A DNA stretch of 64,000 bases, taken from Tricholoma matsutake (Eukaryota; Basidiomycota; Agaricomycetes; Agaricales; Tricholomataceae). The position numbers and the translations under genes are program-made. The notes below the pieces were generated by a model. That model saw only the letters and a program-made list of their open reading frames with translations, was not told where the DNA came from and did not search any database. The DNA is taken from assembly GCA_026075535.2 (NCBI GenBank), contig AP026541.1, forward strand, positions 12,710,001 through 12,774,000. The letters run 5' to 3'. This document shows, piece by piece, positions 29,716-64,000 of this stretch (position 1 is the stretch's first letter; every line of letters starts with the position of its first letter).

Positions 29716-30289
29716 GTCATGTTGCTGAAAACCTAGCTGTGCATGCTGCACATTCCCTGCTGACAACACCCCGCCCTTTCTCTGTCCTTGTCTCCTCCCA
29801 AAGGAAATGGTCTTTCAAATGCAGTATCTATCACCTATGGTGGACAGGGACTTTGTCGACAGCTCGCACTGATGCAAACAGTACACTTGAACAAGTCAGC
29901 TCACCAAATTGCAATTGCAAAAAAGGTGCAATGTGATCATCTTGCAGGTAAACTACATTGATGCTCTATTGCTTGAGCTGCAGCTAACTTTTCTATAGTG
30001 CTCAGCTTCTCTGAGTGTGAAGAATTGCTTCACTTAACAGGAAATGATACTGAAATGATGGATTTAGAGAGGTCTTTACACTCCCCCCCCCCCAATCCAA
30101 GCAGACTCCACTTGGACTCGGACAGTCCTAGGACTGTCCAAGGACTTTGTTTGGACTTTGCTCAGACTTCTTTGGGTGAAAGTCCTGCCAAACTAGATGT
30201 CCAGTCTGAGCTGAGTCCAAGTGTCCAAGTGGTCCAGCACTCATACAGTCCTAGGACTGTCCGAGTTGCTTATATAATTGAGTGAAAAA

Positions 30290-30385
30290 TCAGTGGCTAC
30301 CGCAGGGATTGAACCCTCATAGTCACATGATAAAGTATAATTAAGGCAACAATGTAACTGTTAGACTAAAGTATCATTACAGGTT
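30290..30385 (-). promoter_or_regulatory. Outward tRNA-like unit, left end of E1
   Basis: On the minus strand: A box TAGTCTAACAG (30358-30368) and B box GGTTCAATCCC (30305-30315). Both fit RNA polymerase III internal-promoter consensus. Transcription would run toward the left terminus. Confidence 0.65.
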
Positions 30386-30622
30386 AATAGTTTTATCTCT
30401 CTATGTACTGCCCCAGCTGTGATGACAAATCAACACAGCCACATCACCAACGATGATGCCAGCTCATCATCAATCATCACCAACCACCACCACCACTCAT
30501 GACACTGCCTCCCTCCTGTGTCCTGCTGCTGCCACTGCCCCCTGAACACCCCACAGCAACAGGTCCCATGCCAGCACACAATGAAATGGGCCCAAACGAC
30601 TCTATTGTCATTTGGGCCCCAG

Positions 30623-31059
30623 GTGAGTTTTTTCTTTTTTCTTTTCTCATGTTTTCTTTAAGCTAACACATTTTTTCATTAATTATAGGTTATATCTATA
30701 CTGTAGCAGCACAATGACCCCCAAACCACCAGATGAGGAACAATGACAAGACCACGACCCAGCACCCACCCCCGCCAGTGGGAGCAACTGCTCGCATAGG
30801 GGAGAGTGGCTGCTAATGGTGACAATGATGGCAGGGAACGACGGGTGGAACAACAACAATCAGAGGAGACACCAATGACAGCCAGCACCCCCTATAACCA
30901 CTGCAGGCAACTGCCCATGGGGTGGATGGGGGGTGTGAGAGTGCAGGTACCAACAGGGAGACAAAAAAGGCCCAAGAGACATTAACGTCTCTTGGGTCCT
31001 AGGTAAGTTTTTTTTTTCTTTTCTCATTTCATTTTTTGATGCTAACCAACTTTTTTTAG
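30623..31059 (+). other. Intron-like cassettes in E1
   Basis: Two segments, 30623-30688 and 31003-31059, have GTGAGT/GTAAGT donors after GGNCCYAG, long T-runs, a GCTAAC branch-like site and TAG acceptors. Between and around them lie G/C-rich palindromes GAGCAACTGCTC (30782-30793) and GAGCATCTGCTC (31259-31270). No ORF of note spans the presumed exons. Confidence 0.5.
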
Positions 31060-31559
31060 GTACAAACTACTACTGGCAATGACAATGATGAGGGGACACC
31101 ACCACCACCACTGCTGCAAGCCCCTGGGAAGGTGAGGGTGAAGAGACGAGGGGGAAGGGAGACAAGAGGGAAGGGAGACAAGAGGGAAGGGAGACGAGGG
31201 GGAAGGGAGACGATGACGAGAGTGGGGACACCCATGATGACACTGGCCCCATGCCTATGAGCATCTGCTCATGGGGTGGTTTGGGGGGGAGAAGAATGGG
31301 GACAGGAGAGTGAGATGGCCAGGGGATGACCTGGGGAGAGACAAACACCACCATGAGCAACTGCTTGTGGTGGGTGTTTTAAATTTATTTTTATAATTGA
31401 TAGTTACGGCCCCCTCCCCTCAAGCTTGCAAGGGGAGGGCTTAGTATTATACATATTAATTACCCCTCGCACAGATGTGAGGGGGTCAATTTAATAATCT
31501 ATTCATGATATATAAAAATTAGATTTCAGTAATAAATAGATATAATGTATGTAACTTTA

Positions 31560-31655
31560 AATGACTACTTGGCTTAAGTGGTAGAGTGCACATGTTTCGT
31601 CATCATGTGATTGCTAGTCCAGAAGGCTGTTGGTTCAATTCCTGCTGTGCACACA
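31560..31655 (+). promoter_or_regulatory. Outward tRNA-like unit, right end of E1
   Basis: A box TGGCTTAAGTG (31570-31580) and B box GGTTCAATTCC (31632-31642) on the plus strand, directed toward the right terminus. Confidence 0.7.
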
Positions 31656-33904
31656 TCATTTTGTGAGACTTATAAAACTTTCTCTAAGACTGGAACTTGG
31701 ACTTTACTTGGACAGTGCTTTAAAGGTGTAAATAAATGCACAATTGATGTTGTCTGAGCAAAGTCTGAGTGCAGTCCTCGGACAGTCTGAGTGTCCAAGC
31801 AGAGTCTGAGTGAAGTCCAAGGACAGTCCAAGTGTCCGAGTGTGTCTGAGCAGAGTCCACTCAGACTGTGGGGGGGGGAGTGTAAAGTACTGGATTTAGA
31901 CAACTGGGATGACATTGCTGAACATGACCGCCTGCAAGACATGCCTTCTGGAGATGAGGGATTCCTTCAAAGTCATGCTGGTGTATAAGTTATTCTTCAT
32001 GAAATCCTTGTTGGAATGACTCCTCAGTTTGGTTTGTCTACTCAGTTGTCAATCCAAATTCCTAGAATGGGGCAAACTTGAGATCTACAGACAAGCAAGG
32101 ATTGTACACAAGAGCATATTAATGCTTGGAGAAGGCAGCTTTCTTTTCTCATGGATGCATATCTATTGTGGAAGCATGAAGGACCACCACACCATGACGG
32201 AAGCCACAACTTGGATGCTAGCTCTGGGATTACATGGTCACTATTGACCATGAGTTTTACAAATGAGTACTATGCTCTGGACTCCCAATTACATGTTGTG
32301 ACCCCAATGCCAATGCAGAGCATCAGCCAGTTCAATTCACACATACTGCCACTGCTCGGTCAGTCAATGAAACACTTGTAACTTATGGGTTCCTTGGTGC
32401 CTCTCCTGAAAAGCCAACTCTTGCATTTTCCTTCTCTTTGTTTGAAATTTATTGTCAAATCCATCGGGTCTGTCCACAGTTCAGCATTCACATGCTTGCC
32501 AAGAGTCTCTGCCATTTGCATCAGGTATACTCCCCTGTGCAATTTCATGTTACATATAAGTTTTCTACCAGATCCCTCACTGATCAACTCAGCACTGCCT
32601 ATGACTGCTATCTTGAAGTATGCAGGACATTGCTCAAAGAGCTGATTTGGTGCTCGGACGTAATCCTCAATGGAAACAGCAGAATGTCTGTGCACCCTGT
32701 CTCTACAAGACTGTTGGAGAGCTGCCTCTCAAGTTCTCACTTCTCGCATGCATGCATGGCAACAATTCATGGAAGCTCATAGATAGTACATTCAGGTCAG
32801 GAAAATCATGAATGGATGATTGGGTTTCGGCTTCACCATTGTGGGTAACACCCGAGCAAGTGGATTGCTTCAAAGATGAAGTTCTGAAACATGTTACAGT
32901 ATGTCCTTACTAATGGGATTTATTATCTTCTGAATTCAATGCATATGACCATTTTCAGTCCACTGGTTCTCAAAAGGGCTTATTATCCTCCAATCAAGCA
33001 CCCATTCCATTTCCTATCACATCCAGCACTTCTGTTATCTCTGACTCAGTTCCAACCAATTTTTTGGCTTCCGCCAATACCTCCAATGACACTGCTGAAT
33101 CTGATCTTGATAAAGATGAAATTATGTGGCTCAATCTTGTTGAGCATGATGAGCTCACCCAATGTCTAGACACATGCATTGATCATTGGTGGAATGCCAG
33201 TCCCGAAGCAAGAAAGAAGATGTTTGCCTTATTCACAATTGCTGGCATATTTCTTGCTGTGTGTCACCATGGCCATGTATTGGTGATTTGCGACATGATC
33301 TGAAGTGGGGAGCTGTAAGTTTCTTTTCTCACTTGAACCCTATTCCAAGCTTAACCTTTTTCAGAAAATAGGGAAGGCATTGAAGACATGTGCAGAAGCT
33401 ATTCACTGTGCATTGAATGATTACAATGGAGCAGTGGCACAGCTTAATCCTCCATGAGTGGGAGCAGGTAATCAATGCTGTGACTCTTGCTGACTTCAAT
33501 GTTCTGCATGATACCTGAATGGATATCTGGTCACTTCCCTGGGCTCAACCGGCACATTGTGAAGCAATGAACCTGCACTTTGGCATTGTCTGTGCATGAG
33601 AAGAGATTGAACGACTCAACATCAAGATTTGTCATCTCCTGACTTTCATGATTGACAATCACACTGACTTTTACCGTGCTGTCACATCAAATTTAGTCAG
33701 GAATCCTTCTCTTGCACATCAACTCTTGTGCAAATGGGGAGTATCACACTCATATCCACACAACCATTGCATGAAGGCTCTGACTAACAAGTGTGTTGAA
33801 AGGATTTTCAGGGACTTTGTTTCCTGGTCCTCATGAAGATCATGATTCCAATTTGAACTATGATATTCCACGAGGGCTTTACACTCCCCCACCTTTCCTA
33901 GTAG

Positions 33905-34205
33905 ACTCTGACTGGAGTCCACTGGGACTGGTCACCAGCCAACTGCCTGCAAAGTTGCCAGTCCAGTCCCAGTCCAGTCTGACTGGACTCTGAGTGGAAT
34001 CCACTCAAACACCAGATTCCACTTGGACTAGTCCAGTGGAGTCCAGTTGGAGTCTGGTTGGAGTCCAGTTGGAGTCCGGTTGGAGTCCAGTTGGAGTCCG
34101 GTTGGAGTCCAAGTGGAGTCTGGTTGGAGTCCGAGTGGAGTCTGAGTGGAGTCCAGTTGGAGTCTGGTTGGAGTCCACTGGGAGTCCACTGGGAGTCCAG
34201 TCAAA
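33905..34205. repeat. GGAGTCC tandem array, left end of E3
   Basis: Some twenty units of 10-12 bp such as GGAGTCCAGTT and GGAGTCYGGTT run head to tail. The mirrored array (GGACTCCACTT) lies at 41715-41870 near the right end. Confidence 0.9.
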
Positions 34206-34214
34206 TTCTGCTGA

Positions 34215-34310
34215 AAAAGTGTGTAAGAAAAGGAATTGAACCCAGATCCCTGTAGGTTGCTTATGTAATCATAATGCACAATATAACTGTTACACCACAG
34301 TACCTTGTGT
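34215..34310 (-). promoter_or_regulatory. Outward tRNA-like unit, left end of E3
   Basis: Minus strand: A box TGGTGTAACAG (34287-34297) and B box GGTTCAATTCC (34232-34242). Confidence 0.65.
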
Positions 34311-34396
34311 AAGGTATTTATCATCTACTTGCATTAGGTACCGTGGTGCAGCTGTGTATGACAAAGCATATTGCTGCATCATCAAATGTGCCAGCT

Positions 34397-34452
34397 CATC
34401 ACTCACCACCACCACCACCACCACCACCACCACCACCACCACCACCACCACT
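34397..34452. repeat. (CAC)n microsatellite
   Basis: An uninterrupted CAC/ACC run of about 55 bp within E3. It opens poly-Thr/His/Pro frames on the plus strand, none credible as a gene. Confidence 0.95.
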
Positions 34453-35529
34453 GTCAATGCCACCTCCCTCCCTCCTCTCTCTACCACCACCACCACCACT
34501 GCATGGACACCCACTGCCACTGCTCCCATGCCCAATCTGCCATCACCACCACCCGCAAATGAGCTGAATGGATGGGCCCTAGGTAAGTTTTTTTTCATTT
34601 GCTTTTTGTTTTTATAAACTAACTAACTTGTTTCTTTTGTTTTGTAGGTTCTAATCTACTGGTAATGATGGCCAGATGCGAGACAACCCCACACACCCAC
34701 CCCATGCCTGCGAGCCCCTGCTCGTAGGGTGGATCGTGAGTGTCACCAGGACCCCCAGAACATGAAACAATGGGGCCAACAACACACCACCTGCCTCCAG
34801 CCCCTTGAGCAACTGCTCGGGGGGTGGATCACGGGTGGAATGGAGGTGACGACAGCGAATGATGACAGGGCAATGCCGATGCCAACACAGAACGACACCC
34901 ATGCCAGCCCCCTCCTCCCTGTCCAAACGGGATGTGAGGGTGTCGATAAAGGGTAGGAGATGGCAGAGGGGTACCGGGAGACCTGTGGAGCAGGATACCC
35001 ACCTGGGAAGCACCCACCTACCCCCTCCCTCACATGCCACATCACTGACCCCTTCCCCCAACCCCTCCGAACTAGGAGACCCACAAAACTGACAACACAC
35101 CCACCCCACACTGACGAGCACCTGCTCTTTGGGTGGATGGCAGGTAGACCAGGGCTATGATGACCACAGCACCCATCCCCACACCTACGAGCCTCTGCTT
35201 GTAGGGTGGATGATGGGTGCAGCTTGCTACGGCGACATACATGTGCAAGGAGGGGTGGGCAATGACACCCACCCCAGACTGCATCCCCCAAACCCCCCTC
35301 CCCTGCATTTTGCATGGGGAGGGTCTTTATTATTTTTAATTCATCTCTGCCCCCCCCTCGCATCTTGTGAGAGGGTTTTTTCTTTGTTTATTATTATATT
35401 ATACCCACTCCCTCGTGTCCTACATGAGGGATGTGGTTAATTAAAAATTTTTGATCTTAATTGTTTGAAAAATGCCTCCTCAAAGAATATGAAAAGTTGA
35501 GTCATAAATAAACCTTATATTGATCTCTA

Positions 35530-35560
35530 ACAAGCTTTTTGAATGTGCCTTTGGCACACG
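35530..35560 (-). terminator. Candidate Helitron 3' terminal hairpin
   Basis: TGTGCC-TTT-GGCACA (35544-35558) forms a perfect 6-bp stem about 100 bp past the Helitron ORF stop. On the minus strand it is followed by ATTCAAAAAGCTTGTTAG. Helitron 3' ends carry a short hairpin a few bases before the terminus. The exact end is not fixed. Confidence 0.5.
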
Positions 35561-35663
35561 GGTGATATTTATATTTATATCTACACATCTTTATATATGT
35601 GCTATGATACATTATATTATATACTATGATACATTATTGTACCCATCTTTATGTGCACTCTAT

Positions 35664-38600
35664 CTATACATTATCTAGTAGTACTTCATTATATACAATA
35701 TTTTTTGTTATTGCCTCCTCACTTGTACTTGCCCAGATGGCTTTGATGTTGTGAACTGATGTCACCCAAGAGATTGCCACATAGAACTGCCCATGTGTAA
35801 AAACTGGAGTCCGCAGGTCAAGACCAACATGTCTGACAGACTGGCCCTGTGACTTGTTGATTGTCATTGCAAAGGAGAGCCGCACTGGAAACTGCCTCCT
35901 AGTGAACTCAAAAGGCACTTGATCCTCAGTTGGTCGCAGTGTAATCCTTGGAATGAACACAGTCTCTCCAGCATGATCCCCAGTAAGAAGCTGTACCTCT
36001 AACACCCTGTTTCTCATCCTTTTGAGAATTCCTCTGCTCCCATTGCAGACACCATGCCCAGGATCCAGGTTCTGAAGCACCATCACTGGACAACCAATCT
36101 TGAGAGCTGTCTGAGCCAATGGCAGTCCCAAGCAGTTGATCGAGTTCAGGTACTCCACAGCATACATGAGCTCTCCCTGGTCTTGTGTGTTGTTTGGAAT
36201 TGAGTCAGCACTGTTAAACACCCTCTGCTGTCCAGGGAACTTGTGAAGGATATAAGCATTGAGGTCATCCACATCATCATTGCAGCTTGAGAGGATTGTC
36301 CGATCTGAGAAGTACTGGTCTAAGTGCTGTTGTGGATGATGGATGTCAGGATAGATGGCATCCATGAGGGAGGGGACCAAGTTCTCTGGGCACTTGAAAT
36401 GGTCAGGAAGATGGATGTTGGCCTCATTGTCTGTGTGCATTCCATGACCAACCTCCAGCTGCCACCTTGCAAAGTTGCGCTCCTCTGCAACATCTCCACT
36501 CAAACACATGTTCTGCTTGAGATGGAGCACCTGGATATTCCCCCAAAGAGCAGAGCACTGCATGGAGGCACTGACAGTCTGAGGACATGATCCTCTGATG
36601 ATAACAGGCAGAATCTGCTGAAAGTCCCCTCCAAAGATGATGGAGAGGCCACCAAATGGCTTGTCTGATCCACAGATATCATGGAAGGTGCGATCGATAG
36701 ACTCATGGATGTGACGATGCTGCATGGGGGCCTCATCCCAAATGACCAAGTCTGCTGCACATATGAGCTCTGCATGCTTAGAAGTCTTTGAGAGGCCACA
36801 TGTGGAGGACTCATGGATGGGAATGGGAATCTTGAATGTAGAGTGTGCAGTACGACCACCTTTGAGAAGAAGGGCAGCAATGCCTGAGGATGCAACACAG
36901 AGAACAATCTTAGCCTGGGAGCGAAGCCTGTAGCACAGAGTATTGTAGACATATGTCTTGCCAGTGCCTCCAGGGCCATGAAGGAAAAAGGTCTGGCCAG
37001 ACTGAGTATTGACTGCAGCAAGAATTTCATCAAATGCCACCGTCTGATCCTGATTCAACCTTGCCTCATGCTCAGCTGCCAACACTGCTTGCTCCTCAGC
37101 ATCATACAACCTCTGCTCATTGATGAGGTGGTTGCCAACCATGGCTTGCCAGTCCTGGGTATACTGAGGCATAGTGGGCCAATCAGTGAGGGACTTGTTG
37201 GTATGAGAGAGAAGCCGGTCAATGAGGAAGAGGCCATAGTCCTGGACATCATCATCAGTGGGGTTGAGGTGGGTGTAGTCATGCTGAAGGCGGTAGCGCA
37301 GGTCATCACAGATATGAATCCAAAAGGTGTTCCAGAGTGCAGCAGGGTCAGAGGGCAGACAGTTGTGAAGGATGGTCACAAACAAATGGTGAAGCTGCTG
37401 ACCTGTCTGCATGGACCTGGCCTCCTCTAGACACTGATGCCACTCCTGATCATCTTCTAACAGTCCACAGGCGAGGCAGGCCTCTCTAAAAGATGGTGCC
37501 TGTACATCTTGGAAGGTGAGGAGGTTCTCAAATGATGTTGGGCCCCTGACAGAGGTGAGAAGAAGGCAGAGATAAAAGCGCTCACCAGCAGTGGGGTGGA
37601 CATAATACAGCCTGCCAACTGCAAAGCCACATTTCCTGGGTTTCCACTTGCCAGTACTCTTGTGATACACAAACTTGGAGGGATAGTCCTGGTACAGAAG
37701 GTCACCACCAACCTCTGGATATGCCAGGTTGGCCTTGAAGAATGCAGTGAGAGTGGTGTCTTTTGTGGCTGCTTGCTCAATGACCTGCTGCACAGTCTCT
37801 ACTCTATCCTCACTCCATGTGACATTTTGCTCATTTGGAAGGTGGACATGGAGGTGAACAACATTGGGAGAGGCACCGTGCATGACAAAGTGGAAGAGAC
37901 ACCAGAAGGACTCGCAGGCAGAAACAAAGTGGGCATCCAAGTACTGCCTAACCTCATTATCACAGGTGCCAAACTGCATTGTGACCTGATCATGGCCCTT
38001 GTAAACATACTTGTAGATGTACTTCAAGGCCTTGATGGAGGAAATGACCTCAACATTGATGTGGCAGTGATACTTCCATATAAGATAGGCACAGTAAGTG
38101 ACAACCCAGCGATTGTCGACCTGCTTCCCCTGGACCTCAAAGGTCTGGCCAGTGTTGCGGCACCTTGAAGAGGCATAAGAATCATCAGAGATGGTAGTGT
38201 GCTCTCTGAAGGGCTTGGGAAAGTTCTTGGAGCACTTGCCATTGACCAAGCATGGGGCATCAGCATTGTCATTTTCAGCACCGCAGGGCTTGTGGACCAT
38301 GAACTGCTTGACCAACTCGAGGAGCTCAGGATCATCAACAGGGAACTTGCAAGAAAGAAGGCTGTCCACATCCTCTGGGGTGCGGAGCTTGGAAGCCTCA
38401 TCAAGGAAGATGATGCAGTGCATGTGAGGAAGGCCATGCTTCTGGAACTCAATTATGAAGACATGACCAACAGCTTTGCCAAAGATGCCATGCTCAATGT
38501 CCTTGATCAGCTCCCCACGCTTTGCCTCAAAAGCCCAAACTGCCAAGTCAGGACAGTCTGCTGGATCCTGACCTGGCAACAGGGCATTCTGGATCTCTGG

Positions 38601-39934
38601 CCAGTTGGGGATGGCAGTCATAGTGAGAAAGAGGTCGCCACCTTTGAAGTACTGATTGATGGCCAATGAATCCTGGAGGAGCTGCTGCATGTGGCAGGTG
38701 CTTCCAGCAAAGGAAGATGGCAAGATAGTCCTCTGACCAAGAGCCCTGGGGTCTGCATCAATGTTGGCTGCAACAGCATCTGTGAGCCCAGAATACACCT
38801 CACTGTGAAGCTTGCCCTGGCTGGACATGATATACATCAGACGATCCTGCTCACAGGTGGCCCAATGGTCGCACACATATTGCTGAAAGAGCTTTCCTGC
38901 CTGGAAGATATGCTGGGGCTCAATGTTGGGAGGGCATGGATGAAGGTGATAGCGATAAAACTCAGACTTGGTGACATGCTTGTGCTTTCGAGGCTGGCCC
39001 TCAGCAGGAGGCTCCACAGCACCATCCTGATTGTTGACCTCCTCACCGCCTCTGTACTCGAGCCGAGGATGCCATGAGAGCTGGCCAGTGGGATGCAGCA
39101 GCACATAGTGGAGGGCAGGATAGAAAGGATGGCACTCAGAGATGCGCTGGAGGCCATTCCCATGCTTGCGGTAGAGTACAATGTCATGATAGCCCCCTGG
39201 CTGGTCTCCATCCCCTGGAAGAATAACAGCAATCTCATTTCAGCTGGCATCAGGAAGGTTGTACTGATGACGATCACAGCCCTCATCAAAGCGAAGAGCG
39301 ATCTTGCACTGCTGCTCAGGTGGCAAGTCTTGGGTGAGCTCAAAGGCCTATCTGTAGAGTGCAACTCCTGGATGGTGGTTGTGAAGCATGTCCTGAAGAT
39401 TGCTCAAGATGTCTGGTTGCAGATGGGTGTTCTGTCTGTGGTTGTGACGATGGTCAAGTGCCTGAGCAGGATCATAGATATAAAGCTGGGAGTACACAGG
39501 ATTCTTGCCTGCAAGAGGGAGAAGGGAACCTGCTTTGTGGGACAGCTCACCATGGAGCCTGAAGATCCAGGGCCCATTGCCATTGTTCATGGAGTTGTCC
39601 AGCTTTTGGCCAATGGAGGTCATGGCAAGTGCATTGTTGTAGTTGCGTATGTGCTCACAGAACTCTTTGCTGAGATGATCCTGGCCATTGAAGAGTTGGG
39701 ACAGTTCATGGGGGAGGTCATAGAGATGGGGGAGATCGACTTTTCCACTGAAGCAGCACATGCCAAACTTGGGATTTATCAGAGAAGACTTGGCAGTTTT
39801 CTCTGCCATCCAATGAAGCGCATGGCATGAAGGACATTGGATATCCATACTCCCAAGACTGTGGACAGGCCAGTTGAGATTGAATGGCTGGTGGGCAACA
39901 GGAAGGGGCTGAACAGGTGCAGGTGCAGGAGGCT

Positions 39935-39971
<37 letters not shown>

Positions 39972-40955
39972 TGGATGAGCAGGAGCAGGAGCAGGTGGAT
40001 GAGCAGGAGCAGGAGCAGGTGGCTGAGCAGGAGCAGGGACAGGAGCAGGTGGCTGGAGTGGATTCAAAGGAGGCATGGCAGGGAAGGGCTGGTTGTTCAA
40101 GCATCAGCCATGAAATGTACATACAAAATGGTAGAAGGAGAATACCCACCACAGCAACAGGAGCTCCTCTACCTCTACCTCTACCTTGACGTCCACGCAC
40201 AGGAGCAACTGGCAAGGGTGGAAGAGCTGCATGCTGGGCCATGAGATCAGCCATAGGCAGTGGAGCAGGAGCAGCCCCACAACCTTGAGCCCCATGACCA
40301 CGACCTCGTCCTGCATTGATAGGAAGTGGTGGAAGAGCAGCATACTGGGCCATGAGATCTGCAAATGTGAGGGGAGCAGGAGCAGGAGCCTGGAGTGGGG
40401 GAACACCAAAAGGGTCAGAGTTATTAGCAGCTGGACCAACCATGGGAGGAGAAGGAGGGAGTGGGAGGCCAATTGGAGAAGGGGCAAAGTGCAGTTGGCG
40501 GGCATGATGAGGGGTGCGGTGACGCTGAGGGCTATCCAGGACACGCGGGTCTCGTTCACTTTGCTGGGCAGCAATACAGATCTGCTGAGGAGTGTTGGGA
40601 GGGGTTTGATCCCTGCAGAGGCAAGGATGAGAATAGAACAAAAGAAGGAAAGAAATCAGAATGTACTCATGCGGGACAAATCAATGCAGATCTTCATCTT
40701 CATCTTTTGCTCCTGAGGCTGGTCCAGAGCACTCTCCTGCTGCAGCTGTGCACTCAGATTCTTAAAAGCAGCAGTGAAATCAGTGCAAACAGCAGTAGTT
40801 GACAGTGGAGTGACTTCCAGTGATGGAAGGGGAGGCAACTGCATACCCGCCAGCCCAATCTCCCTACACACTGTGCCCAGAGAGAGGTCCAGGCCCAAAT
40901 CAACTGGCAGACACTCCTTTGTTGAAAAGGAGAAGCCAGGGAGGCAGGACTTCAC
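35664..40955 (-). CDS. Helitron Rep/helicase (RepHel), nearly intact
   Basis: The main frame 39104-35664 is open for 1146 codons. It holds an HUH Rep domain (GLPHMHCIIFL, then YIYKYVYKG with paired Tyr) and a PIF1-type helicase: Walker A GPGGTGKT, VIWDEAPM, FGGDFQQ and a C-terminal motif AMTINKSQGQ. The same frame continues upstream to 40088 through TGA at 39240 and TAG at 39348, giving the Helitron-like N-terminal region (HALHWMAEKT, PKFGMCC, NYNNALAMTS) and a Pro/Ala repeat. Introns are likely at about 40089-40152 and 40613-40666, with exons to 40955. The protein would nick and unwind DNA for rolling-circle transposition. Two point nonsense changes make this copy suspect, although both core domains are intact. 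Confidence 0.88.
39915..40075. repeat. GAGCAG/GTGGAT repeats in the Helitron N-terminus
   Basis: Hexamer and 24-bp repeats (GAGCAGGAGCAGGTGGAT type), encoding PAPAPAHP on the minus strand. Confidence 0.85.
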
Positions 40956-41520
40956 TGGGCTTCACCTTGGTCTACTGATTCCTCAAGAACCCAATTGCAA
41001 AGGCAACTGGAGGAGAGAAAACACCAAACCCCACTCACCTCACTCAAAAGGCAGGTCCAGGCCCAGGCCCAGGCCAAAAGCTGGGAAGAGAAGGCCATCA
41101 GCAAAAAAGAGAGGATGGCAAGGGAACACCCAACAAAAATCCAGGTGCAAACAGGCCTAGAGGGACAGATACTATGAGAAACCAAGAGGTAAGGCAGCTG
41201 ACTCACCAAAAGAAGGATAGCCAAAAACTGAAAAGACAGCAAAAACCCTCTAAATGGCAGAAGCCAGGGGCTGTAGAACCCCCAAAACAGTGTCAGATGG
41301 TCAGCAGGACCCAATGACACCTAAACCTACCTTTGTGGAAGGCAGAACGCAGAGGGAGAAAGGCAGGGAAGAAGAGAAGTCGCATGCAACAAATATTTTA
41401 TTTTGATGCGTGATGCGCTGGCATGGGTTTTGCCGGCATAAAACAGCACAGTCTGCTTAGTCAAATTTTATGTAACATTAAAACTTTCTTGGGGTCAGCT
41501 GACTGACATGACTTTATTAT
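40956..41520. other. Helitron 5' flank inside E3
   Basis: No supported gene. The minus-strand 5' end of the Helitron should lie here, probably before the AT-rich stretch at 41390-41520. I could not fix the TC terminus. Confidence 0.35.
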
Positions 41521-41524
41521 ATTA

Positions 41525-41620
41525 TAAGTCTCCTGTGGCTCAAGTGGTTGAGCACACTTGTTTGGTTTGTCATGTGATTCCTTATGGTGAGGTCTTGAGT
41601 TCAATTCCTGCAGTACACAA
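41525..41620 (+). promoter_or_regulatory. Outward tRNA-like unit, right end of E3
   Basis: A box TGGCTCAAGTG (41536-41546) and B box AGTTCAATTCC (41598-41608) on the plus strand, pointing to the right terminus. Confidence 0.65.
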
Positions 41621-42079
41621 ATTTATTTTGTGGGTACTTTATGAAATTCACCAAGTCTGAAGTCCTTTGAGCTCATATCTAATTGACTTATCATTTGGTT
41701 GAAATGCATTCCACTCGGACTCCAGTTGGACTCCAGTTGGACTCCAGTGGGGGATTGAACTCTACATGACTTAATGTAGTTCAATTGGACTTCACTCAGA
41801 CTCCACTTGGACTCCACTTGGACTCCACTTGGACTCCAGTCAGTCCAGTCGGAGTCCACTAGGACAGGTGGGGGACTGTAAAGTACTGTATTCCACTGCC
41901 TCCATGGGTGGGCTTGTTGAAGTTGAAGGTGAAATTGATGGATTGGGGAGGGTGTCAGATGATCTGGACAATGATGATGACCTTTTACCTCATGACCTGG
42001 ATGTTAATACAGATTTAGTTATTCAGCTCATGGAACACATTAATACTACTGCTAGTTTAGATGATTTCTATTAGATCAT

Positions 42080-44629: not shown

Positions 44630-44743
44630 CCCCATCAACATTGGAAGAGAGGAGGACGCCAGTCTCTCAACTGGCATCAACATATGCAATGGTGGCATGG
44701 GTACTGCCTCAGGGACACATCCAGAAGGACATAGAGATGGAGG

Positions 44744-45703: not shown

Positions 45704-46284
45704 ATGGGTGTGTCCATCATCTACATTCAGAAAAAGAAGAGAAAGAAAAACAGGAAAGGGAAAGCAGCTTGAAGACAAGCTGAAGAAGAGGTGGAGGAAT
45801 GCAGTAGTGGGATATCCCCCAGGTCAGACATGGGCGATGGGGAAGCGTCACTACCACAGGAGCAACTGCTGCCATCAGGCGACACAGAGCACCTGCCTAC
45901 AGACGGTGTGCACAAGGACATCGAGATGGAGTGAGAGGTGGGATTCCACCTCAAAAAACAAAAAAAAAGAATCATGTTTTTTCATAGAAAAAATGAGGTC
46001 TTTACTGTGCCCCACATATTCTGAGCCAGTCCGCATGGAACTTGGTGGACTCCACACAGACTAGCTCGGACTCCGCACGGACTGGCATTCACTCATTTGG
46101 CTCAAATGTCCTGTATAGCAGTTGCTCGGACTCTGCACGGACTTTCGTGGAGTCCGAGCTGTTTTTGCACCTTTACTCGGAGTGCACACGGACTTTGTCC
46201 AAGCAACATCAATTTACTCAGACTCAGACGGATACATGTCCAAGTCATCCGAGTTGAGTCCGTGGATGCATAGCAGAGGCTACA

Positions 46285-46380
46285 GAAAAATTATGTAGTA
46301 AAGGAGAATCAAACTCCAAGCCTTATCACCAAGCATAAATAGCAGCAATTAACCACTACACCACAGAGCCATTGTCAAAC
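46285..46380 (-). promoter_or_regulatory. Outward tRNA-like unit, left end of E4
   Basis: Minus strand: A box TGGTGTAGTGG (46353-46363) and a weaker B box AGTTTGATTCT (46305-46315). Confidence 0.55.
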
Positions 46381-46399
46381 AAGCAAACAATTGCATTAT

Positions 46400-48041: not shown

Positions 48042-49229
48042 CAGGGGGAATTATACGTGGGGGTGCCCAAGGTAATGTGTACAACATTGCTGATCGTATC
48101 AAATATGAGGGGGATATTTCCCCAACTACTAGTGAATTCTTCTTTATTAATATCATCATACCCAAGTATAATAACCTAGAATAATAGGGAAAGTTTTTGT
48201 GTTCTGGTCACATGGTAACCCTGATACTTCTGAGCCATACATGACCCTTAGCCATCATGTAACACCAACCTTGGGGCCAGTTTTGAAGAAACTTGGCATT
48301 CAATATTCTCCTGTTTCCAGTAAGTCATTAATTAAAATAAATATTAGGTGGATAAATCTATTTTGGGATTTTTAGAGAAAAATCAGCAGATTTTTGTCTA
48401 TGAGGATGATTTTTGGGCTGTTAAAGGATGATACAACACAGCAGTGGCAGATAATGATAGTGCAGAGTGGAAAGTTATCAATAATCAATTTCATTTGAGG
48501 TTACTGATTGTGAGATTTTATTCTTGATTTGAAAATCTTCTTCTCACCATTAAATTAGACTGACGATGAACCGATTTCTTCAGCATCTCAGGGTCCTTTG
48601 TCTGCATCAACCTCAGAACCCCCTCCATATGTTGGACATATGGCCCCCACAGTCGACATGTTCAAGTCGCAGTTTATTTGCATCCTTGATATTCCCTCCA
48701 ACCTGATAGGTACTGGTGATGTGTCACTCAAGATTGCATATCAAAAGTACAAGGCATTTCTTGTTGCCAGTCATACTGTTAATGACATGGTGGTGAGTGT
48801 GACTTGGGAAATCAAGCAACCAATGAAAACTGACCTCATTGAAATTTTCATCTCCAAATCATATTTCCATTCTCACTATTGTCGATATTTCACAAAGGTA
48901 GCTGCTATCCACAGATGGTGGCGTGGTTGGAGGGGGAGACTGATGAGGAAGACATTGGCATTTGGGGGTTCAAGAAGATTTCATATACCTTCACTGATTT
49001 GAATACTTGGCTGTTGAATGGTGGGCCCTTGGAGTTTGAGGATGAGGATGAGGATGGGAAATTGGTGAAAAAGAAGAAAAAGGGGAAGGGAAAAGCAAAA
49101 GAGATGGAAAAAGAGAAAGGAAAGGAAAAGAGGAAGGAAAAGACGATGGAAAAGGAAATGGAAATGGGAAAGGGGAAGGGGAAGGAAAAGGTGCATAAAA
49201 AAAAGAATACCAGCAAAAAGGCCCAGTAA
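48042..49229 (+). pseudogene. E4 middle gene: FKSQF...Lys-rich protein
   Basis: Fragments in order: GGIIRGGAQGNVYNIADRI (48035-48100), GKVFVFWSHGNPDTSE (about 48190-48240), then 48598-48900 (APTVDMFKSQFICILDIPS; VTWEIKQPMKTDLIEIFISK) and, after a one-base slip at about 48895, 48900-49229 (MVAWLEGETDEEDIGIWGFK; LNTWLLNGGPLEFEDEDED) ending in a long Lys/Glu tail. The segment around WEIKQPMKTDLIEIF resembles TWKPQKPMKAEALLL in the mariner cargo gene at about 54180. Function unknown; possibly a DNA-binding partner of the CxC5/CxC6 protein. Confidence 0.45.
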
Positions 49230-49417
49230 GTAGGGATGATAAACCAAAATGATCAATAATTATATCATCTCTTTGCAGTACTTGGATAGTATCAACTTGG
49301 ATTATAAGCCACATCCTGGCTCTGGTTTCCAAAATCCTTGTATTGGCCATAAATCGTGTACCCTGGCACATCTGGACTTGGGTGGTTTTGTCAGCATTTA
49401 TTCCTATTGCCTCTGCA

Positions 49418-51601
49418 ATGCCAGCAGGAGAGGATCCTTTCCCAAATATCACATTCAAAGTCTTCAGTCAATTTATCAGCCAACACTTCAGCTCTAAAAC
49501 ATCACTATCAGCAGTGCTTGTCCTATTGTTTTCATTGACTGAAAATCCTGAGTTGTTGAATCTCCATGCCTGGCAGCAATACATTCAATGTGAAGGAGAA
49601 AATCATGTCATGGCATCAGGTTGGATCAAGGGTCTTGCATGGGCAATCAAAGAAAATATGGATAACAATCAGCAAAGGCCTTTGAAGATGAAGGAGGTTG
49701 ACAAAAACATGGATGCTGAACAAGAAATTACTGCACTCAGCCTCAAGCTTGATGCAGCTGCAAAACTTTTGAATTTGCATCAATACAATGCACGTGGACA
49801 TCTGCAAAAGAAACTACAACCCATATCCCATAAATTGATCCAGCCAGTACATGTTCTTTGTCCCAACTCAATGGAATGTAAAACAGCAAATTGCAATTCA
49901 AGGGCACTACACCAGGCCATCCAAACACGGAATATTCCTCGAGTCACACTGATCAAGAATTCAGTAATACATGAAAATGTTTTTGCTTTGACTGGGGAAT
50001 GCTTAACCTGCAAGACCAAATATTCAGCAGACCATGAACGGGCAATTGAAGTTGGGGAGGCACATCAATATAGCAGGGTTTATCTGAATTCTGCCTGATA
50101 CCTCAAGATAGGTCAGAGTGTATGGGTGGACTGGGCATTTTCTCATGGTGTCTTGAATGGCATCTACAATTTCCATGCATCAGCTTCAGCATATGCAGAA
50201 TATTGGAATAACAGCTTTAAAAAGCATCAAACTGTCAATTTCAATGGGGTGACACGCTGCCAGGTCTGGCAAGCATTTGTTCAGGAGTCTATTCAGACAG
50301 TTGCTTCTCCATATGGAACTGATCTCACACTTCATGATGGCTTAGCAATTGATGAAGTGACCAGGGAGGCATTCTTATCTCTGGGACAAGATGGAATTAT
50401 TCTGGCAGCCAAAGACCACCACTGCTCAGATTGCACTCATCCATACAGACAAACATCTGATCTCACTGCCATCAGTGATCCAACTGCAACTCTTGAAAGC
50501 AATAATATACCTGTATCACAGAGGGCAGGTGATAATTTGCAACAGGGTTCATCAGCTGGACAAAGAATGGAAGTGGAGGATTCAACTGCTCGAGATGTGA
50601 CAATGGCTGTTGTTGATGGAATTGTCTTTGGACCCCCAGTATGGAACATCTACTGGCAAATACAAATTGATCACTTATAATATTTTTTTGATAATTAGCA
50701 TTGTGCATATGATGACTGCACTGCAGAGTTGGCAAATGCAAGAGGTGGGGTTTTTTGTGCTCTGCATGAACAACAACATGGGGCCACATGCCATGTTCAA
50801 GGATGGGAAAACCAGAAAGTTCATGGGACAAATGCATGTCAAGATCATGAGGAAATGTGGAAGAGATATCTCAGTAACCATTCTCGCAAACAGCTGTCTG
50901 GCTTTCAAAGGATGCTGCATAGGCCTGGTGAAAATCTACCATGGCAACCTGCTCAAGACTCAATTGGACAACCTCATGACCAACCAGCACCTGATGTGCA
51001 GTATGCAACCTACTTTATGCCACACCGCTTTTACTGTGTTGAAACAATATGTGCACCATGTGGAGTTGTCATTGCTTGGGCAAAATTTGCAAAATTGGAA
51101 TCACCCACTAATATTATGCACTTTTTGGAGACAGTATATCCAACAGAAGAATCACACCCTGATTATATATGCATTGACAAAGCCTGTGTGGTGCTGAGCC
51201 ATAGTATTGCTGATGGTAGCTGGGAATCATGGGCTAAAACAAGCCAATTTATTGTCGACTCCTATCATTACACCAACCATCAAACAAGTGATTATTTGTG
51301 CAGGAAGTGGTGCAATCCAGCTCCTTTGGATGGCTCTGCTCCAAATTTGGTCATTCTGGACTACAATAATGAAGGGCAGCCATACTACAAACATGCATTC
51401 AATACACAGGCATGTGAACAACTCAATGCATGGCTTGGTGGGTTTGAATCAATATTGAGAAAGATGACAGTGGGGAATTTCAATTGGTTTTTGCATACAA
51501 TGTTGTTTTACCATACCCAGATGGTTCTTGAAAGGAAACAACAGAAGGTTAGTGACAGTGGTGATGATAGTGATGGAGATAATGATAGTGAGCAGGAGTA
51601 G
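49418..51601 (+). pseudogene. CxC5-CxC6 KDZ-associated protein, likely transposase of E4
   Basis: Exon 1 runs 49418-50638 (ATG at 49418, MPAGEDPFPN), intron 50639-50698 (GTATGG...TTAG), exon 2 50699-51601. The CxC5 cluster is CPNSMECKTANCNSRAL...CLTCKTKYSADHER (about 49855-50040). CxC6 is HCAYDDCTAEL...FCALHEQQHGATCHVQG...ACQDH (50699-50850). The C-terminal half has ETICAPCGVVIAWAKF, YICIDKACV, FIVDSYHYTNHQTSDYLCRK and ACEQLNAWLGGFES, an order that fits a DDE/RNase H-like core (D, D, E; inferred). TGA at 50096 sits where Arg is expected. One CxC6 position reads Trp (HVQGW), where the repeat pattern suggests Cys. About 707 residues if read through. Confidence 0.8.
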
Positions 51602-51689
51602 TACAAATCTCTATTACTTATAGTGTATCACTGGTTTATTCTTTACATATGTCTATGATAGTCATGTTTCACTGATGTTAACTTGTACT

Positions 51690-51815
51690 AGCTCGGACTC
51701 CACATGGACTAGCTCGGACTCCACATGGACTAGCTCGGACTCCACATGGACTAGCTCGGACTCCACATGGACTAGCTCGGACTCCACATGGACTAGCTCG
51801 GACTCCATGCAGATT
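51690..51815. repeat. 21-bp tandem array, right end of E4
   Basis: Five perfect copies of AGCTCGGACTCCACATGGACT (51690-51794) and a sixth diverged copy, then scattered GGACTCCACACGGACT units to about 51995. The matching left array is 46030-46262. Confidence 0.95.
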
Positions 51816-52358
51816 AGTGTAACAGTCCATTTGAATGGGTTTCTACTCAGACTAGTGCAGACTCCACACGGACTAGGTTGGACTCCATGTGGACTGGGTC
51901 AGACTACACATGCATAAGGGTGGGAATTTCCATTTTAGTCACCAGGTGGTCGGACTCCACACGGACTAGCTCAGGCTCTGCACAGTCCGCTAGGACACGT
52001 GGGGCACTGTAAATTACTGGAAAAACCTTTCTTTGCATTGACAAATGATGCATTGCATAGAGACCCATGCGGCTGTTAAAATCACTGGTGGGCATGGTGC
52101 TTGGGTGGCCAATGTCATGTTGGGCATTGGTGAGCTATCAATTGTTTTTCAAAATTTTTATTTTTTTGAAATTTGAATGTACAATGTGCATGTACTAGCA
52201 TGGCACAATCACAGTCATTACAGCCCTTCCAGAAACTAATGAGAATCATGGATTTTTTTTCTTTTTTTTTCACATGTGAAAGTAGTCAATTTCCTTTTTG
52301 AGAACTGGCTCTTTGAATGCATCCAGCTCAGCATTGACGTGTGTGTCCATTCTACCAT

Positions 52359-55323: not shown

Positions 55324-55420
55324 GTATGTTCTCATGTAATTGCCAAGATGTTCTTTGTGTGTTCTTTCCACTTGTAATCGACAGACATGTAATAAGTAGT
55401 ACAATTTGCAGCAACTTCAT

Positions 55421-56500: not shown

Positions 56501-56632
56501 GATAGTGATGATGGTTCTAAAAAAGGAAATTGACTACTTTCACATGTGAAAAAAAAAAAAAGAAAAAAAATCCGTGATTCTCATTAGTTTCTGGAAGGAC
56601 TGTAAATTTGCATGGTGAACCATGCTTCCTAT

Positions 56633-57030
56633 TGTTAAGAGATATAAGTATATATCAGTACATTCCTTAGTAAGTAATGTGTAGAAAATCAACCTAACAT
56701 AATCAGAGTATAACTCAGTCTCTGTATAAGTGACTATATAAATACAATCACTGTACCTAGTGTAATCAGAGTATAACTATAAGTACAGTAAGTATTGGTC
56801 CGTAATCTCATAATGTCTAAAATACTCACCTCAGTCTCTGTATAAGTGACTGAGGTGATTGGATAACTATGTCCCCTATATATAAGTGAGTCCAGCTACA
56901 TAAAGAGTCAAAGGGATAAGAGGCATAAAGGTATCTATGAGACAGTGCATCAAAGGGATATACTAAAAATAGTATGCACATCAAAGATGTGATCATGTAT
57001 ACTTACAGTGTGATAATCAACATCTCAACA
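56633..57030 (-). repeat. 3' LTR of the minus-strand copia element
   Basis: On the minus strand it begins TGTTGAGATG just after a purine tract GGAGGAG and ends CTCTTAACA, 398 bp. The second LTR is beyond 64000. It carries several repeats of CTCAGTCTCTGTATAAGTGACT and CATAATCAGAGTATAACT. Confidence 0.6.
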
Positions 57031-59827: not shown

Positions 59828-60479
59828 CAGCTTGTCTTCAAATTGAAGTGATTCCGGATCAAAATCGTCCATCTCTGAAATCATAGCCAGAAGTTCATGT
59901 GCCTGATCACCAAGATTGAGATTTTCAAAGGCCTGTTGTAGATCAGTAATGACATCATGATCAGGGAGGGCCTCATCTAAGGCATTAATGGCCTGTCTAC
60001 CTGCCCTCCGCTCTTGATGTGCCTCTTTTATGCGGGTTGCGCTATCTTGGGATTCTTGTACTGCCTTCATTGTATGTGTGATAGATAGTCCCCCATTAGG
60101 ATTCCTTTCAGTTGGGACTGGTACACAAGATGATCGGCAAGGTGGTTCCAGTTGGGGGATGGGCAGCACAGTATGGTTAGTAACAGGAGGGTTGGATGGT
60201 GGGATAAAATCAGTACTTTACACTCCCCCCCCCAGTCCAAGTGGACTCTGCTCGGACACACTCGGACACTCGGACTGTCCAAGGACTTCACTCGGACTCT
60301 GCTTGGACTCTGCTTGGACACTCAGACTGTCCTAGGACTGTCTGAGTTGTCTGAGTAAAGTCCAAGGACTGCACTCAGACTGCACTCAGACTTTGCTCAG
60401 ACAACATCAATTGTGCATTTATTTACACTTTTTAAAGTACTGTCCAAGTAAAGTCCGAGTTCCAGTCTTAGATAAAGTC

Positions 60480-60590
60480 TCACAAAATGATGTGTGCACA
60501 GCAGGAATTGAACCAACAGCCTTCTGGACTAGCAATCACATGACAACAAAACATGCACACTCTACCACTTAAGCCAAGTAGTCATTTAAA
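60480..60590 (-). promoter_or_regulatory. Outward tRNA-like unit, left end of E2
   Basis: Minus strand: A box TGGCTTAAGTG (60566-60576) and B box GGTTCAATTCC (60504-60514); the same unit as the right end of E1. Confidence 0.7.
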
Positions 60591-61849
60591 GTTACATACA
60601 TTATATCTATTTATTACTGAAATCTAATTTGTTATATATCATGAATAGATTATTAAATTGACCTCGCATCTGTGCGAGGGGTAATTAATATGGGTAATTA
60701 ATATGTATAATACTAAGCCCTCCCCTCCCAAGCTCGAGGGGAGGGGGCCGTAACTATCAATTATAAAAATAAATTAAAAACACCCACCATGAGCGGTTGC
60801 TCATGGCGGCGTTCATCTCTCCCTGGGTCGTCCCCTGGCCATCTCGCTCTCCTGTACCCATTCTTCTCCCCCTTGAACCACCCCACAAGCAGATGCTCAT
60901 AGGGGTGGGGCGGGTGTTGTCATGGGTGTCCCCACTCTCGTTGTCATCTCCCTTCCCTCTTGTCTCCTTCCCCCTCATCTCTTCCCCCTCACCTTCCACC
61001 CTGCAAGCAGTGGCTTGCAGCAGTGGTGGTGGTGGTGTCATTGTTGTTGTTGTTGCCAGTAGTAGTTTGTACCTATAAAATGTTAGTTAGGATCAAAAAA
61101 TGAAATGAGAAAAGAAAAAAAAACTTACCTAGGACCCCTAATCGTGGTCATTCCTGTCATCGTTCCCTGCCATCATTGTCATTCCTGCATGGTGGGCATG
61201 AGTAGCTGTTCTTGTTATTTCAAAGTTGCACCTATTCCCACCCCGCGAGCAGCTGCTTGTGGCAGTGGTTCTGAGTGCTCATCATCGTTGTCGTCAGCAG
61301 TACTAGATAATACCTCCAAAGGTTCATTAGTAACAAAAACAAGAAAAAAAAACTTACCAATGGCCCAAGAGACGTCTTTTCTTCATTTGCTTTGCCTTCC
61401 TTTCGTTGTTTCCTGCTCGTCCCCTTGTCATTCCATCTCCCAGTTCCAGTCGTCTCCAGTCGCCTCGTTGCGTTGTCGTTCTGTTTGGCCAAGTTGGTGT
61501 TGCCGTTGTCTTGCCATTTTGCAGTTGTACCTGTTCCCACCCTGCAAGCAGTTGCTTGCGGCAGTGGTTCTGGGTCCTAGGGTGGTGGCTGTGTCAGCCG
61601 TTGTCATGGTTTTGAGGCTGCGGCATTGTTATAACATAGATAAAACCTATCATTAAGGAAATTTCAGTTAGTTAAACAAAACAACAAAAATCATGTAAAA
61701 AAACACTTACAAGTGAGCCCGTTGTTGGTTATTGGGGTAGGAGGTAAGGAGGAGGCAGGGCCATTGCCAGCGTTGTTGATGACGCAGCTGTGTTGATTTG
61801 TCATCACAGCCAGGGCGGTACATAGACAGATATAACTACTTATCTGTAA

Positions 61850-61945
61850 TGATACTTTAGTCTAACTGTTATATTGCTGACTTAATTGTGCTTTATCATG
61901 TGACTATGAGGGTTCAATCCCTGTGGTAGCCACAGATTTTCAGTC
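61850..61945 (+). promoter_or_regulatory. Outward tRNA-like unit, right end of E2
   Basis: A box TAGTCTAACTG (61858-61868) and B box GGTTCAATCCC (61911-61921); the same unit as the left end of E1. Confidence 0.7.
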
Positions 61946-64000
61946 AATTATATAAGCAACTCAGACAGTCCTAGGACTGTACGAGTGCTGGTCCACTCAG
62001 ATGCTCGGACAGTCCGAGGACTCAGCTCGGACTCAGCTTGGACTGGACATTTAGTTTGGCAGGACTTTCAGCCAAAGAAGTCCAAGCAAAGTCCGAGCAA
62101 AGTCCGAGTGTCTGAGCGGAGTCCACTCAGATTGGGGGGGGAGTGTAAGACCTCAGATAAAATCATCATCATCATCGGCATAAAGCAGGGGGGTGAATGT
62201 GGGGTTGGCAGTTTCATCAGGGGTGGAGTCTGCCTTGGGTGGGGTTGGGCTCTGCCATGGGCACATGTGTCCATCATGGCTCTCGAGGAAATGGACATGG
62301 AAAGAACTATGTATTTTCTGCATAGTGTGGTCATAGCATCAGTACATTTTTGAGTTTGGGTCATAGCCAATCAGTGTACACTCAATTGACCGTTCACAAA
62401 TCTTTGGGTTGTCTTTCTTTGGTATCAGGACAAAAGCCTGACATCCAATTTCCCACATATAGGAATAGTCTGGCTTTCGACCAAACCATAATTCCCAAGG
62501 TGTGATTCCCTGTAGCGAGTGGGTTGTAGTTTTTGAATGCAGATGTGTAGCTGTTAAATAAAATTCATCCCAAAGAAAAGGGGGCAGTCCTGCATACAGC
62601 TGCATTGTTTGTGCCTTTGCCATGAGCATTCAATGCATCCATTTGACACATCCAATGTGAGTGGATGTGTGTGGAGCAGTGAAGTGTTGGTCTGATCCCC
62701 AAGATTTAAGCCATGTCTGCATTTTGCTGGACTTCAGCTCTCCATTGTTGGTAATGCATGTCCCAACTTTCAAGCTGGTTTCATTTTTGTGTGCCAACTC
62801 CCATGCCTTGAGCTCAGGAAATGAATCATCTTTATGTTTGAGGGGTATAGACCATGGAAATGAGGTAAAATCATCGATGATGTCCATTACATATTCATGA
62901 CCAGTACGGGACTTGACCACATGTGGGCCTGGTAGATCAACCCACACCTTCTCTAGATGCCTTGTTGCCCTATGGCCTTCACCCCCCTCATGTTTCTTCT
63001 GAACCGATGCTTTTGTCTGTTTTCCAACAACACAGGCATCACATTTGGGTGGCTGTGTAGTGGCTGACAATGGTGTACCTGTGAGTGCGCCTTTCTTGGC
63101 CATATCCCACAGGGATTGATAATTGGCATAGCCAAGGCCACGGTGCCAGGTCTCCAGCTTTGGAGATCTGTGAATTGTTAATGTGTGCTCAGCAGACGCA
63201 GAGTGTAGGGTGAGCAAGTAAAGTTTCTTGGGGGTCATAGAACCACAAGCTATCAATGTGCCTGTGGATTTATTAGTTATCCAGCAAGATGAGTCATCAA
63301 AATGTGTGACAGCATTTGAGTCTCTGGCAAGGGAGCTGACAGATACCAGCCAAACTGTTGACTCAGGGACATAGAGTGCATTATGTAAGGTGATTGATGC
63401 GCCCTGAGCTACCTGTAGTTTGATATCACCCATGCCGATCGCAGTGATCAAAGATCCTCCCATGCCCCTGATTGATCAAGGAGTGATCAGGCAGAGAGAA
63501 AAGAAATCAGAACAGTCTGGGGATATGTGGACCATGGCGCTGCTGTCAACAAGGAAGGGTAAATCAGTCAATGAGATATGGGTGCACCTGGTCTGACTTA
63601 AGGGTGCAACAGTGAAGGTGCTGTTGTCCACTGGAATGGTGTGCTTTACCCAATCAATGGTGGTCCTCAGCTCCTCCTCAACCATGAGCCAACCCTTGTA
63701 TTCAATTTCATCAATTGTAGAGATGAGGGCAGGGTCACATGCTATACCCACAAAGTCAGGGGGTGAGGTCACCACTAAGGAGGGGTTATGATCGACCATG
63801 ACCATGAAGGTACAGCCATTCATGTCTTCCATGGTTATGGGGATCTTTGAAGTAATGGGACTAGGCTTTTTCTTTTGGTCAGAAGCTGCCCTCCGAGCTG
63901 CAATCAACTCAGTAAGTGTCTTCCCTGCCATCCCTCCACCAGGTTTGATGCAGTACTCGATGGTGTGTCCTGGCTTCCCACAAGTAGAGTTGCTACAAAT

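What the first reader, a model, noticed from the sequence alone, without database searches (positions are those of the whole stretch)
30069..62155. A transposon family (E) whose ends carry outward-facing tRNA-like Pol III promoters
Seen directly: four copies (30069-31890, 33872-41886, 45995-52017, 60213-62155) share CTTTACACTCC-type inverted ends, flanking repeats of about 10 bp (10/10 in E1 and E2, 8/10 in E3, 7/10 in E4), GGACTC-rich arrays and, at seven of eight ends, a tRNA-like unit with A and B boxes. In every case the A-to-B direction points toward the nearest terminus. A DNA transposon that may drive Pol III transcription out through its own subterminal repeats is not a layout I know. 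The transcripts would cover the repeat array and TIR, and could serve as guide, silencing trigger or decoy for transposase; that part is inference.
Basis: partly seen in the sequence, partly recalled or inferred. Interest (0 to 1): 0.87.

Follow-up and report, generated by a model that had tools for sequence, protein, structure and literature searches.

The report
Pol III units at transposon ends
In the matsutake mushroom genome, a very common kind of cut-and-paste jumping DNA carries a small tRNA-gene-like switch just inside many of its ends, pointing outward and with its own stop signal, a layout I did not find described in the papers I could search.

Summary
The window lies in the Tricholoma matsutake telomere-to-telomere assembly. 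E1-E4 are TIR transposons with 8-bp (not 10-bp) target duplications and unlike tips (GAGGYC / CAGTA). E3 carries KDZ-transposase-associated CxC5 and CxC6 domains; E2 is a roughly 2-kb element with a Helitron-like insertion. Seven of eight ends carry a tRNA-like unit, all pointing outward.

In 140 ends sampled by exact tip, the whole module (A box, B box, T4+ run 12-17 nt after the B box) is outward in 99 and inward in 1, which is the far end's unit in a 0.77-kb copy; 60 flanks have none. The 111 units fall into 15 clusters sharing little but A box, B box and T run, usually with a palindrome TYAYRTRA between the boxes. No consensus RNA fold was found.

Best reading: each border holds a complete Pol III unit (predicted RNA about 100 nt), kept to assemble Pol III factors, perhaps as a chromatin barrier or polar replication-fork barrier. 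Transcription itself is untested.

The parts
30069..31892 (+). E1, non-autonomous element, L tip left, R tip right, TSD GATTTAGA 30061-30068 / 31893-31900
   Evidence: full-length relatives at 83-86% identity
30285..30368 (-). E1 left Pol III-type unit (A box to T run), outward
   Evidence: T5 at +15 after the B box
31570..31662 (+). E1 right unit, outward
   Evidence: Rfam tRNA model 22.8 bits at 31586-31653, below gathering 29
33872..41888 (+). E2, about 2-kb non-autonomous element split by a nested insertion, TSD TATTCCAC 33864-33871 / 41889-41896
34030..34201 (.). E2 left subterminal array, 11-bp period GGAGTCC-type repeats
34214..34297 (-). E2 left unit, outward
   Evidence: T4 at 0 and T5 at +13 after the B box
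35530..41525 (-). nested Helitron-like insertion in E2 (Helitron_like_N + PIF1 ORF 35664-39239), not part of the system
41536..41629 (+). E2 right unit, outward
   Evidence: T4 at +17
45995..52019 (+). E3, KDZ-associated element with coding sequence, TSD GAAAAAAT / GAAAAACC (6/8)
46286..46363 (-). E3 left unit, outward; degenerate B box (3 mismatches), T5 at +14
   Evidence: the first 412 bp of E3 recur at 40 of 40 scored places
49844..50218 (+). E3 CxC5 cysteine cluster (one TGA inside)
50699..51601 (+). E3 open frame with CxC6 cysteine cluster; relatives in many Agaricomycetes
51687..51807 (.). E3 right subterminal array, 21-bp period
60211..62154 (-). E4, E1-type element inverted (R tip left, L tip right), TSD GATAAAAT 60203-60210 / 62156-62163
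60484..60576 (-). E4 left (R-type) unit, outward
   Evidence: T4 at +16
61858..61940 (+). E4 right (L-type) unit, outward
   Evidence: T4 at +15

Best explanation
These are KDZ-associated (Zisupton-like) TIR DNA transposons of T. matsutake. Their terminal arms run: tip, GGACTCC-type subterminal array, then a complete tRNA-derived type-2 Pol III transcription unit (A box, usually the palindrome TYAYRTRA, B box, T4-T5 run) pointing at the tip. Shown: the layout, its direction, its preservation across 15 sequence clusters, the T-run position. Inferred: TFIIIC and TFIIIB bind and Pol III makes RNAs of about 100 nt that stop before the array. Most likely use (inferred): the assembled Pol III complex, not the RNA, is what is kept; it holds each border of the element open and blocks spread of silencing over the terminal arrays that the transposase is presumed to bind, as tRNA genes do at yeast heterochromatin borders.
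For: Full module outward in 99 of 140 ends, inward in 1 (explained), 0 of 60 flanks. Starting from two unit cores instead, 71 of 76 on contig 1 lie outward beside a tip with 0-1 mismatch. T4/T5 run at +12..17 in 110 of 111 units and 14 of 15 clusters, against 27 of 1158 same-size windows on the interior side. Between 13 cluster representatives A box 0.69 and B box 0.78 identity, middle 0.57 against 0.52 shuffled. Boxes plus T run vary less than the rest of the unit within five clusters pooled (86 of 2626 against 458 of 7399 cells). No consensus RNA pairing. Units also in transposase-associated copies. In S. pombe a tDNA barrier needs TFIIIC and Pol III (PMC2040200 abstract).
Against: No transcription, binding or chromatin data. 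The S. pombe barrier works in either direction (PMC2040200 abstract), so it does not explain a strict outward direction, which could also be inherited. 36 of 140 ends lack the unit even by the wider criterion, including R ends of transposase-associated copies. B boxes of cluster 1 (0.084 against 0.061) and A boxes of clusters 2 (0.110 against 0.086) vary more than the rest. One host genome only.
Confidence: 0.45

Rival explanations
1. Polar replication-fork barrier: forks that enter the element from either side meet the outward Pol III unit head-on and pause at the border, which would couple transposition to replication or expose the ends.
For: Outward direction at both ends of all six complete two-unit elements and in the sample. 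Fork pausing at tDNAs depends on direction (PMC7990762 passages).
Against: No replication data; direction may be inherited from one ancestor; many R ends have no unit.
Confidence: 0.2
2. Vestige: an ancestral element took up tRNA pseudogenes or SINE heads next to its ends; they ride along without function.
For: No tRNA-family match in 20 loci; no RNA fold; some clusters' boxes decay as fast as the rest; some lineages lack them.
Against: Clusters that are otherwise near shuffled identity keep A box, B box, T run and often TYAYRTRA at set spacing; a SINE head would not be expected to carry a terminator at +12..17 (recalled).
Confidence: 0.17
3. The RNA is the product: a short Pol III RNA, or a read-through RNA over array and TIR, acts as guide, silencing trigger or decoy.
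For: Complete Pol III gene layout; about half of the runs are T4 only (53 of 110), a weak terminator in fungi (recalled).
Against: T run before the array in 110 of 111 units; body sequence and fold not conserved between clusters.
Confidence: 0.1

Closest known systems
Zisupton / KDZ (Kyakuja-Dileera-Zisupton) DNA transposons
   Same: 8-bp TSD as for Zisupton (PMC12730594 passages); CxC5 and CxC6 clusters in E3
   Different: Outward Pol III units at the ends; the word tRNA does not occur in PMC12730594. Kyakuja as described there has 7-bp TSD and no TIR
tRNA-gene (TFIIIC/Pol III) chromatin barriers of yeasts
   Same: A box, B box and terminator; a whole Pol III gene at a border (PMC2040200 abstract)
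   Different: There a host tRNA gene; here a transposon-borne unit without tRNA fold, in fixed outward direction
tRNA-derived SINEs
   Same: tRNA-like A/B-box promoter in a repeat
   Different: SINEs are retroelements with the promoter at one end; here units sit inside both TIR-TSD-bounded ends with their own T run
Cassandra TRIM elements (recalled, no call)
   Same: A mobile element carrying a Pol III gene in its ends
   Different: LTR retroelement with a 5S gene, direct not inverted ends

Membership tests
KDZ / Zisupton DNA transposon | 8-bp target site duplication | tested here: met
   E1, E2 and four further complete copies 8/8, E3 6/8, E4 8/8 with a one-base offset
KDZ / Zisupton DNA transposon | KDZ transposase or its cysteine clusters | tested here: inconclusive
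   E3 has CxC5 and CxC6 but no PF18758 (KDZ) match, also not in four relatives scanned. Exact tips lie within 9 kb of 2 of 18 CxC5 and 1 of 29 distinct KDZ hits on contig 1 (L-tip list complete only to 11.84 Mb). At least 14 of 40 E3-type L ends have CxC5 3.8-6.5 kb inside. E1, E2, E4 carry no such gene and are linked by tips, TSD and arm layout only
KDZ / Zisupton DNA transposon | terminal inverted repeats | tested here: met
   GAGGYCTTTACACTCC / CAGTACTTTACACTCC type
tRNA gene | cloverleaf scored by a tRNA model | tested here: not met
   ARAGORN 0 in the window; one sub-threshold Rfam hit there; no RF00005 at E up to 5 in 20 loci with ends
Pol III type-2 transcription unit | A box, B box at tRNA-like spacing, T4+ terminator | tested here: met
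Pol III type-2 transcription unit | transcribed by Pol III in the cell | not testable with these tools
   no RNA or ChIP data at hand
SINE | retroposed copy with promoter at its 5' end, 3' tail and own target duplication | tested here: inconclusive
   71 of 76 units on contig 1 lie at a transposon tip, not free; duplications around the unit itself were not sought
Helitron (insert of E2) | Helitron_like_N plus PIF1 helicase | tested here: met
   Helitron termini were not tested

The most novel reading that the evidence does not exclude
A large lineage of KDZ-associated DNA transposons uses paired outward Pol III genes as built-in polar border devices (chromatin barrier and head-on replication-fork barrier), with an extra TYAYRTRA factor site inside each gene, so that Pol III machinery is a working part of a cut-and-paste transposon.
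Probability: 0.3. Interest if true: 0.9.

Novelty: new variant of a known kind. Interest (0 to 1): 0.72.

Why it matters
If the units are live, hundreds of Pol III complexes would sit at transposon borders in one genome: a natural, much-replicated test of whether Pol III genes insulate DNA or steer replication forks, and a new way for a DNA transposon to deal with host silencing. It would also bear on how tRNA-like and repeat sequences are annotated in mushrooms.

Tried and rejected
Rejected or lowered: read-through of array and TIR (T runs); a simple SINE insertion (both ends, strict direction, 15 clusters, T runs); the PIF1 helicase as part of the system (nested insertion); a functional tRNA; a 10-bp TSD (8 bp).

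Led nowhere: the first loose box scan rang on both strands and in flanks. (A+B mismatches at most 1): L ends 40 outward, 3 inward, 6 both, 21 none; R ends 40 outward, 0 inward, 30 none; shuffles 1 of 210 and 0 of 210; the inward L hits printed there are mostly GGTTGGAGTCC array repeats. Word searches for a DNA transposon with tRNA-like or Pol III ends (held no paper) gave, by their listings, none that describes this; for that point only PMC12730594 (passages, outline, one section) and PMC5014426 (passages) were opened. Subscription papers, the first Zisupton and KDZ papers among them, were not seen. No other fungal genome was available. Which host tRNA the units derive from was not worked out; 14 of the 20 host tRNA stretches fetched read as near-copies of one tRNA.

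Limits of the counts: the 140 ends are the first by position with an exact 16-base tip (contig 1 for L; contig 1 and the start of contig 2 for R), so families with other tips are missed. One search looked at the outward strand only, at both. In some searches inward tips were sought among listed exact tips only. One search used only part of the 163 CxC5 matches, so 14 of 40 is a lower bound. Clusters may share an ancestor, so cluster counts are not independent events, and the small P value ignores relatedness. In one search one KDZ row was entered twice (29 distinct).
Full report
WHAT GENOME. The window lies in a genome of 161,040,721 bases in 13 contigs. That total and the lengths of C12 and C13 (9,912,917 and 9,869,253) equal the published telomere-to-telomere assembly of Tricholoma matsutake (PMC10211490, passages).

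THE FOUR ELEMENTS. E1-E4 are insertions with 8-bp target duplications (E3 6/8, E4 with a one-base offset). The tips differ: GAGGYCTTTAC.. at one end (L), CAGTA.TTTAC.. at the other (R); E4 is an inverted E1-type copy. E3 encodes CxC5 and CxC6, cysteine clusters associated with KDZ transposases, with relatives in many mushrooms (894 proteins, best 120 listed); the KDZ profile PF18758 itself does not match it. E2's helicase gene belongs to a nested Helitron-like insertion: element matches stop near 35534 and resume at 41524, insert matches start near 35530 and end near 41525-41529, and in copies without the insert the halves are adjacent, for example C7:8601349-8602684 and C5:2319969-2320976.

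THE UNITS. Seven of eight ends carry a tRNA-like unit on the strand that reads toward the tip. In the whole window, A and B boxes (at most 2 mismatches in all) with a T4 run 12-17 nt after the B box occur six times, all at these ends; the seventh, E3 left, has 3 B-box mismatches.

Exact tips: 1018 L and 387 R, reversed controls 0. I took 70 L and 70 R ends by position. A+B with at most 2 mismatches plus the T run: outward 58 of 70 L and 41 of 70 R, inward 1 and 0; with 3 mismatches 61 and 41 outward, 1 and 0 inward; 0 of 60 flanks on either strand. The one inward case, L032, is a copy of about 0.77 kb: its far tip (3 mismatches) lies at 751 bp with a 7/8 TSD, so the inward unit is the outward unit of the other end. 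Starting from units instead: two unit cores have 289 and 270 exact copies, reversed controls 0. Of 76 of these on contig 1, 57 lie outward beside a listed exact tip, 14 beside a tip with 0-1 mismatch, 5 beside none found within 450 bp, and none had only an inward exact tip. Six complete elements in hand carry outward units at both ends.

ENDS WITHOUT A UNIT. By the wider criterion, 7 of 70 L and 29 of 70 R ends have none. The 29 R ends group into families of 9, 4, 4, 3, 3, 3 and three singles. One (L060) lies 2.1 kb from a CxC5 gene, and E3's own R end has none.

T RUN. A T4 or T5 run starts 12-17 nt after the B box in 110 of 111 units and 14 of 15 clusters (the last run is T5 in 57, T4 in 53); same-size windows on the interior side have one in 27 of 1158. 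Of 20 host tRNA stretches, 15 have it at +13 or +16, one at +11, four have none in the 21 nt seen. Assuming a start 12 nt before the A box, the RNA would be 89-119 nt; the run ends 53-506 (median 232) bp from the tip. The array and TIR lie outside such a transcript.

WHAT IS CONSERVED. The 111 units form 15 clusters at 75% single-linkage identity, nine of them single sequences. Between 13 representatives the A and B boxes are alike (0.69, 0.78), the middle is near shuffled level (0.57 against 0.52), trailer positions 1-11 are not alike (0.31), the T-run stretch is (0.54). In an alignment of 12 representatives and L190 the invariant columns fall in A box, B box and T run, and RNAalifold predicts no pair. 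cmscan finds no tRNA in 20 loci. Within five clusters pooled, boxes and T run vary less than the rest (86 of 2626 against 458 of 7399), but not in every cluster: B box of cluster 1 and A box of cluster 2 vary more.

A FURTHER MOTIF. An 8-bp palindrome TYAYRTRA (TCATGTGA, TTACATAA and the like) lies between A and B in 99 of 111 units and in 9 of 15 clusters, and by eye in L190; shuffled middles have it in 515 of 22,200, interior positions 11 of 35,711, terminal arms 0 of 22,775, host tRNA stretches 0 of 20. It resembles bZIP or bHLH sites with decayed CpG (recalled; CpG observed/expected 0.31 in the window, 0.16 in the units). What binds it is unknown.

LINK TO TRANSPOSASE-ASSOCIATED COPIES. 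The first 412 bp of E3, unit included, match at 40 of 40 scored places (190 candidates); at least 14 of the 40 have CxC5 3.8-6.5 kb inside on the same strand. A CxC5 element on contig 1 with an exact GAGGTCTTTACACTCC tip has another unit, read by eye in L190: A box without mismatch, B box AGTTCAATCCT, a T6 run about 16 nt on. So the unit is not confined to non-coding copies.

HOW IT MOST LIKELY WORKS. Boxes and T run are kept while the RNA body drifts, which points to the Pol III complex, or the act of transcription, as what is selected (inference). A tDNA barrier in S. pombe needs TFIIIC and Pol III but works in either direction (PMC2040200, abstract); fork pausing at tDNAs depends on direction (PMC7990762, passages). 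Outward direction at both ends fits a fork barrier or simple inheritance from one ancestor; the data do not separate these.

NOVELTY. Eight word searches of an open-access library listed no paper that describes this; subscription papers were not searched. I rate it a new variant of a known kind: KDZ-associated TIR transposons with terminal Pol III units.

Noticed in passing
L188 (G000:C1:7782500-7783500), L189, L119: Near-identical tRNA genes (56.3 bits; anticodon read by eye as TAT, Ile) sit in reverse inside a short repeat with TGTT..AACA ends; in L188 two copies lie about 300 bp apart, like a tiny LTR element carrying a tRNA gene in its LTR. It may explain the 275 tRNA-Ile(TAT) genes reported for T. 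bakamatsutake (PMC10627285, passages).
   Followed up: partly
window 35530-41525: A Helitron-like insertion of about 6 kb (Helitron_like_N + PIF1) nested in E2, a few bases from the E2 right unit; related insertions at about 20 other places.
   Followed up: partly
window 28889-29717: A 406-bp inverted repeat with 96% complementary arms and a 17-bp gap.
   Followed up: no
window 52218-52305 and 56514-56605; 52763-53972 and 58621-59829: 53-bp inverted arms 4.2-4.3 kb apart, perhaps another TIR element, and direct repeats of 81-86% identity about 5.86 kb apart.
   Followed up: no
genome-wide: Exact L tips outnumber exact R tips (1018 against 387), so R tips vary more, or L-tip families differ in their R tips.
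   Followed up: no
window 23532-23625: A hairpin with sub-threshold matches to the mir-237 model on both strands (36.7 and 27 bits, gathering 80).
   Followed up: no
own genome: The tRNA model had 11,061 first-look candidates of which 63 were scored, far more than a normal tRNA set would need; how many are units of this kind was not counted.
   Followed up: no
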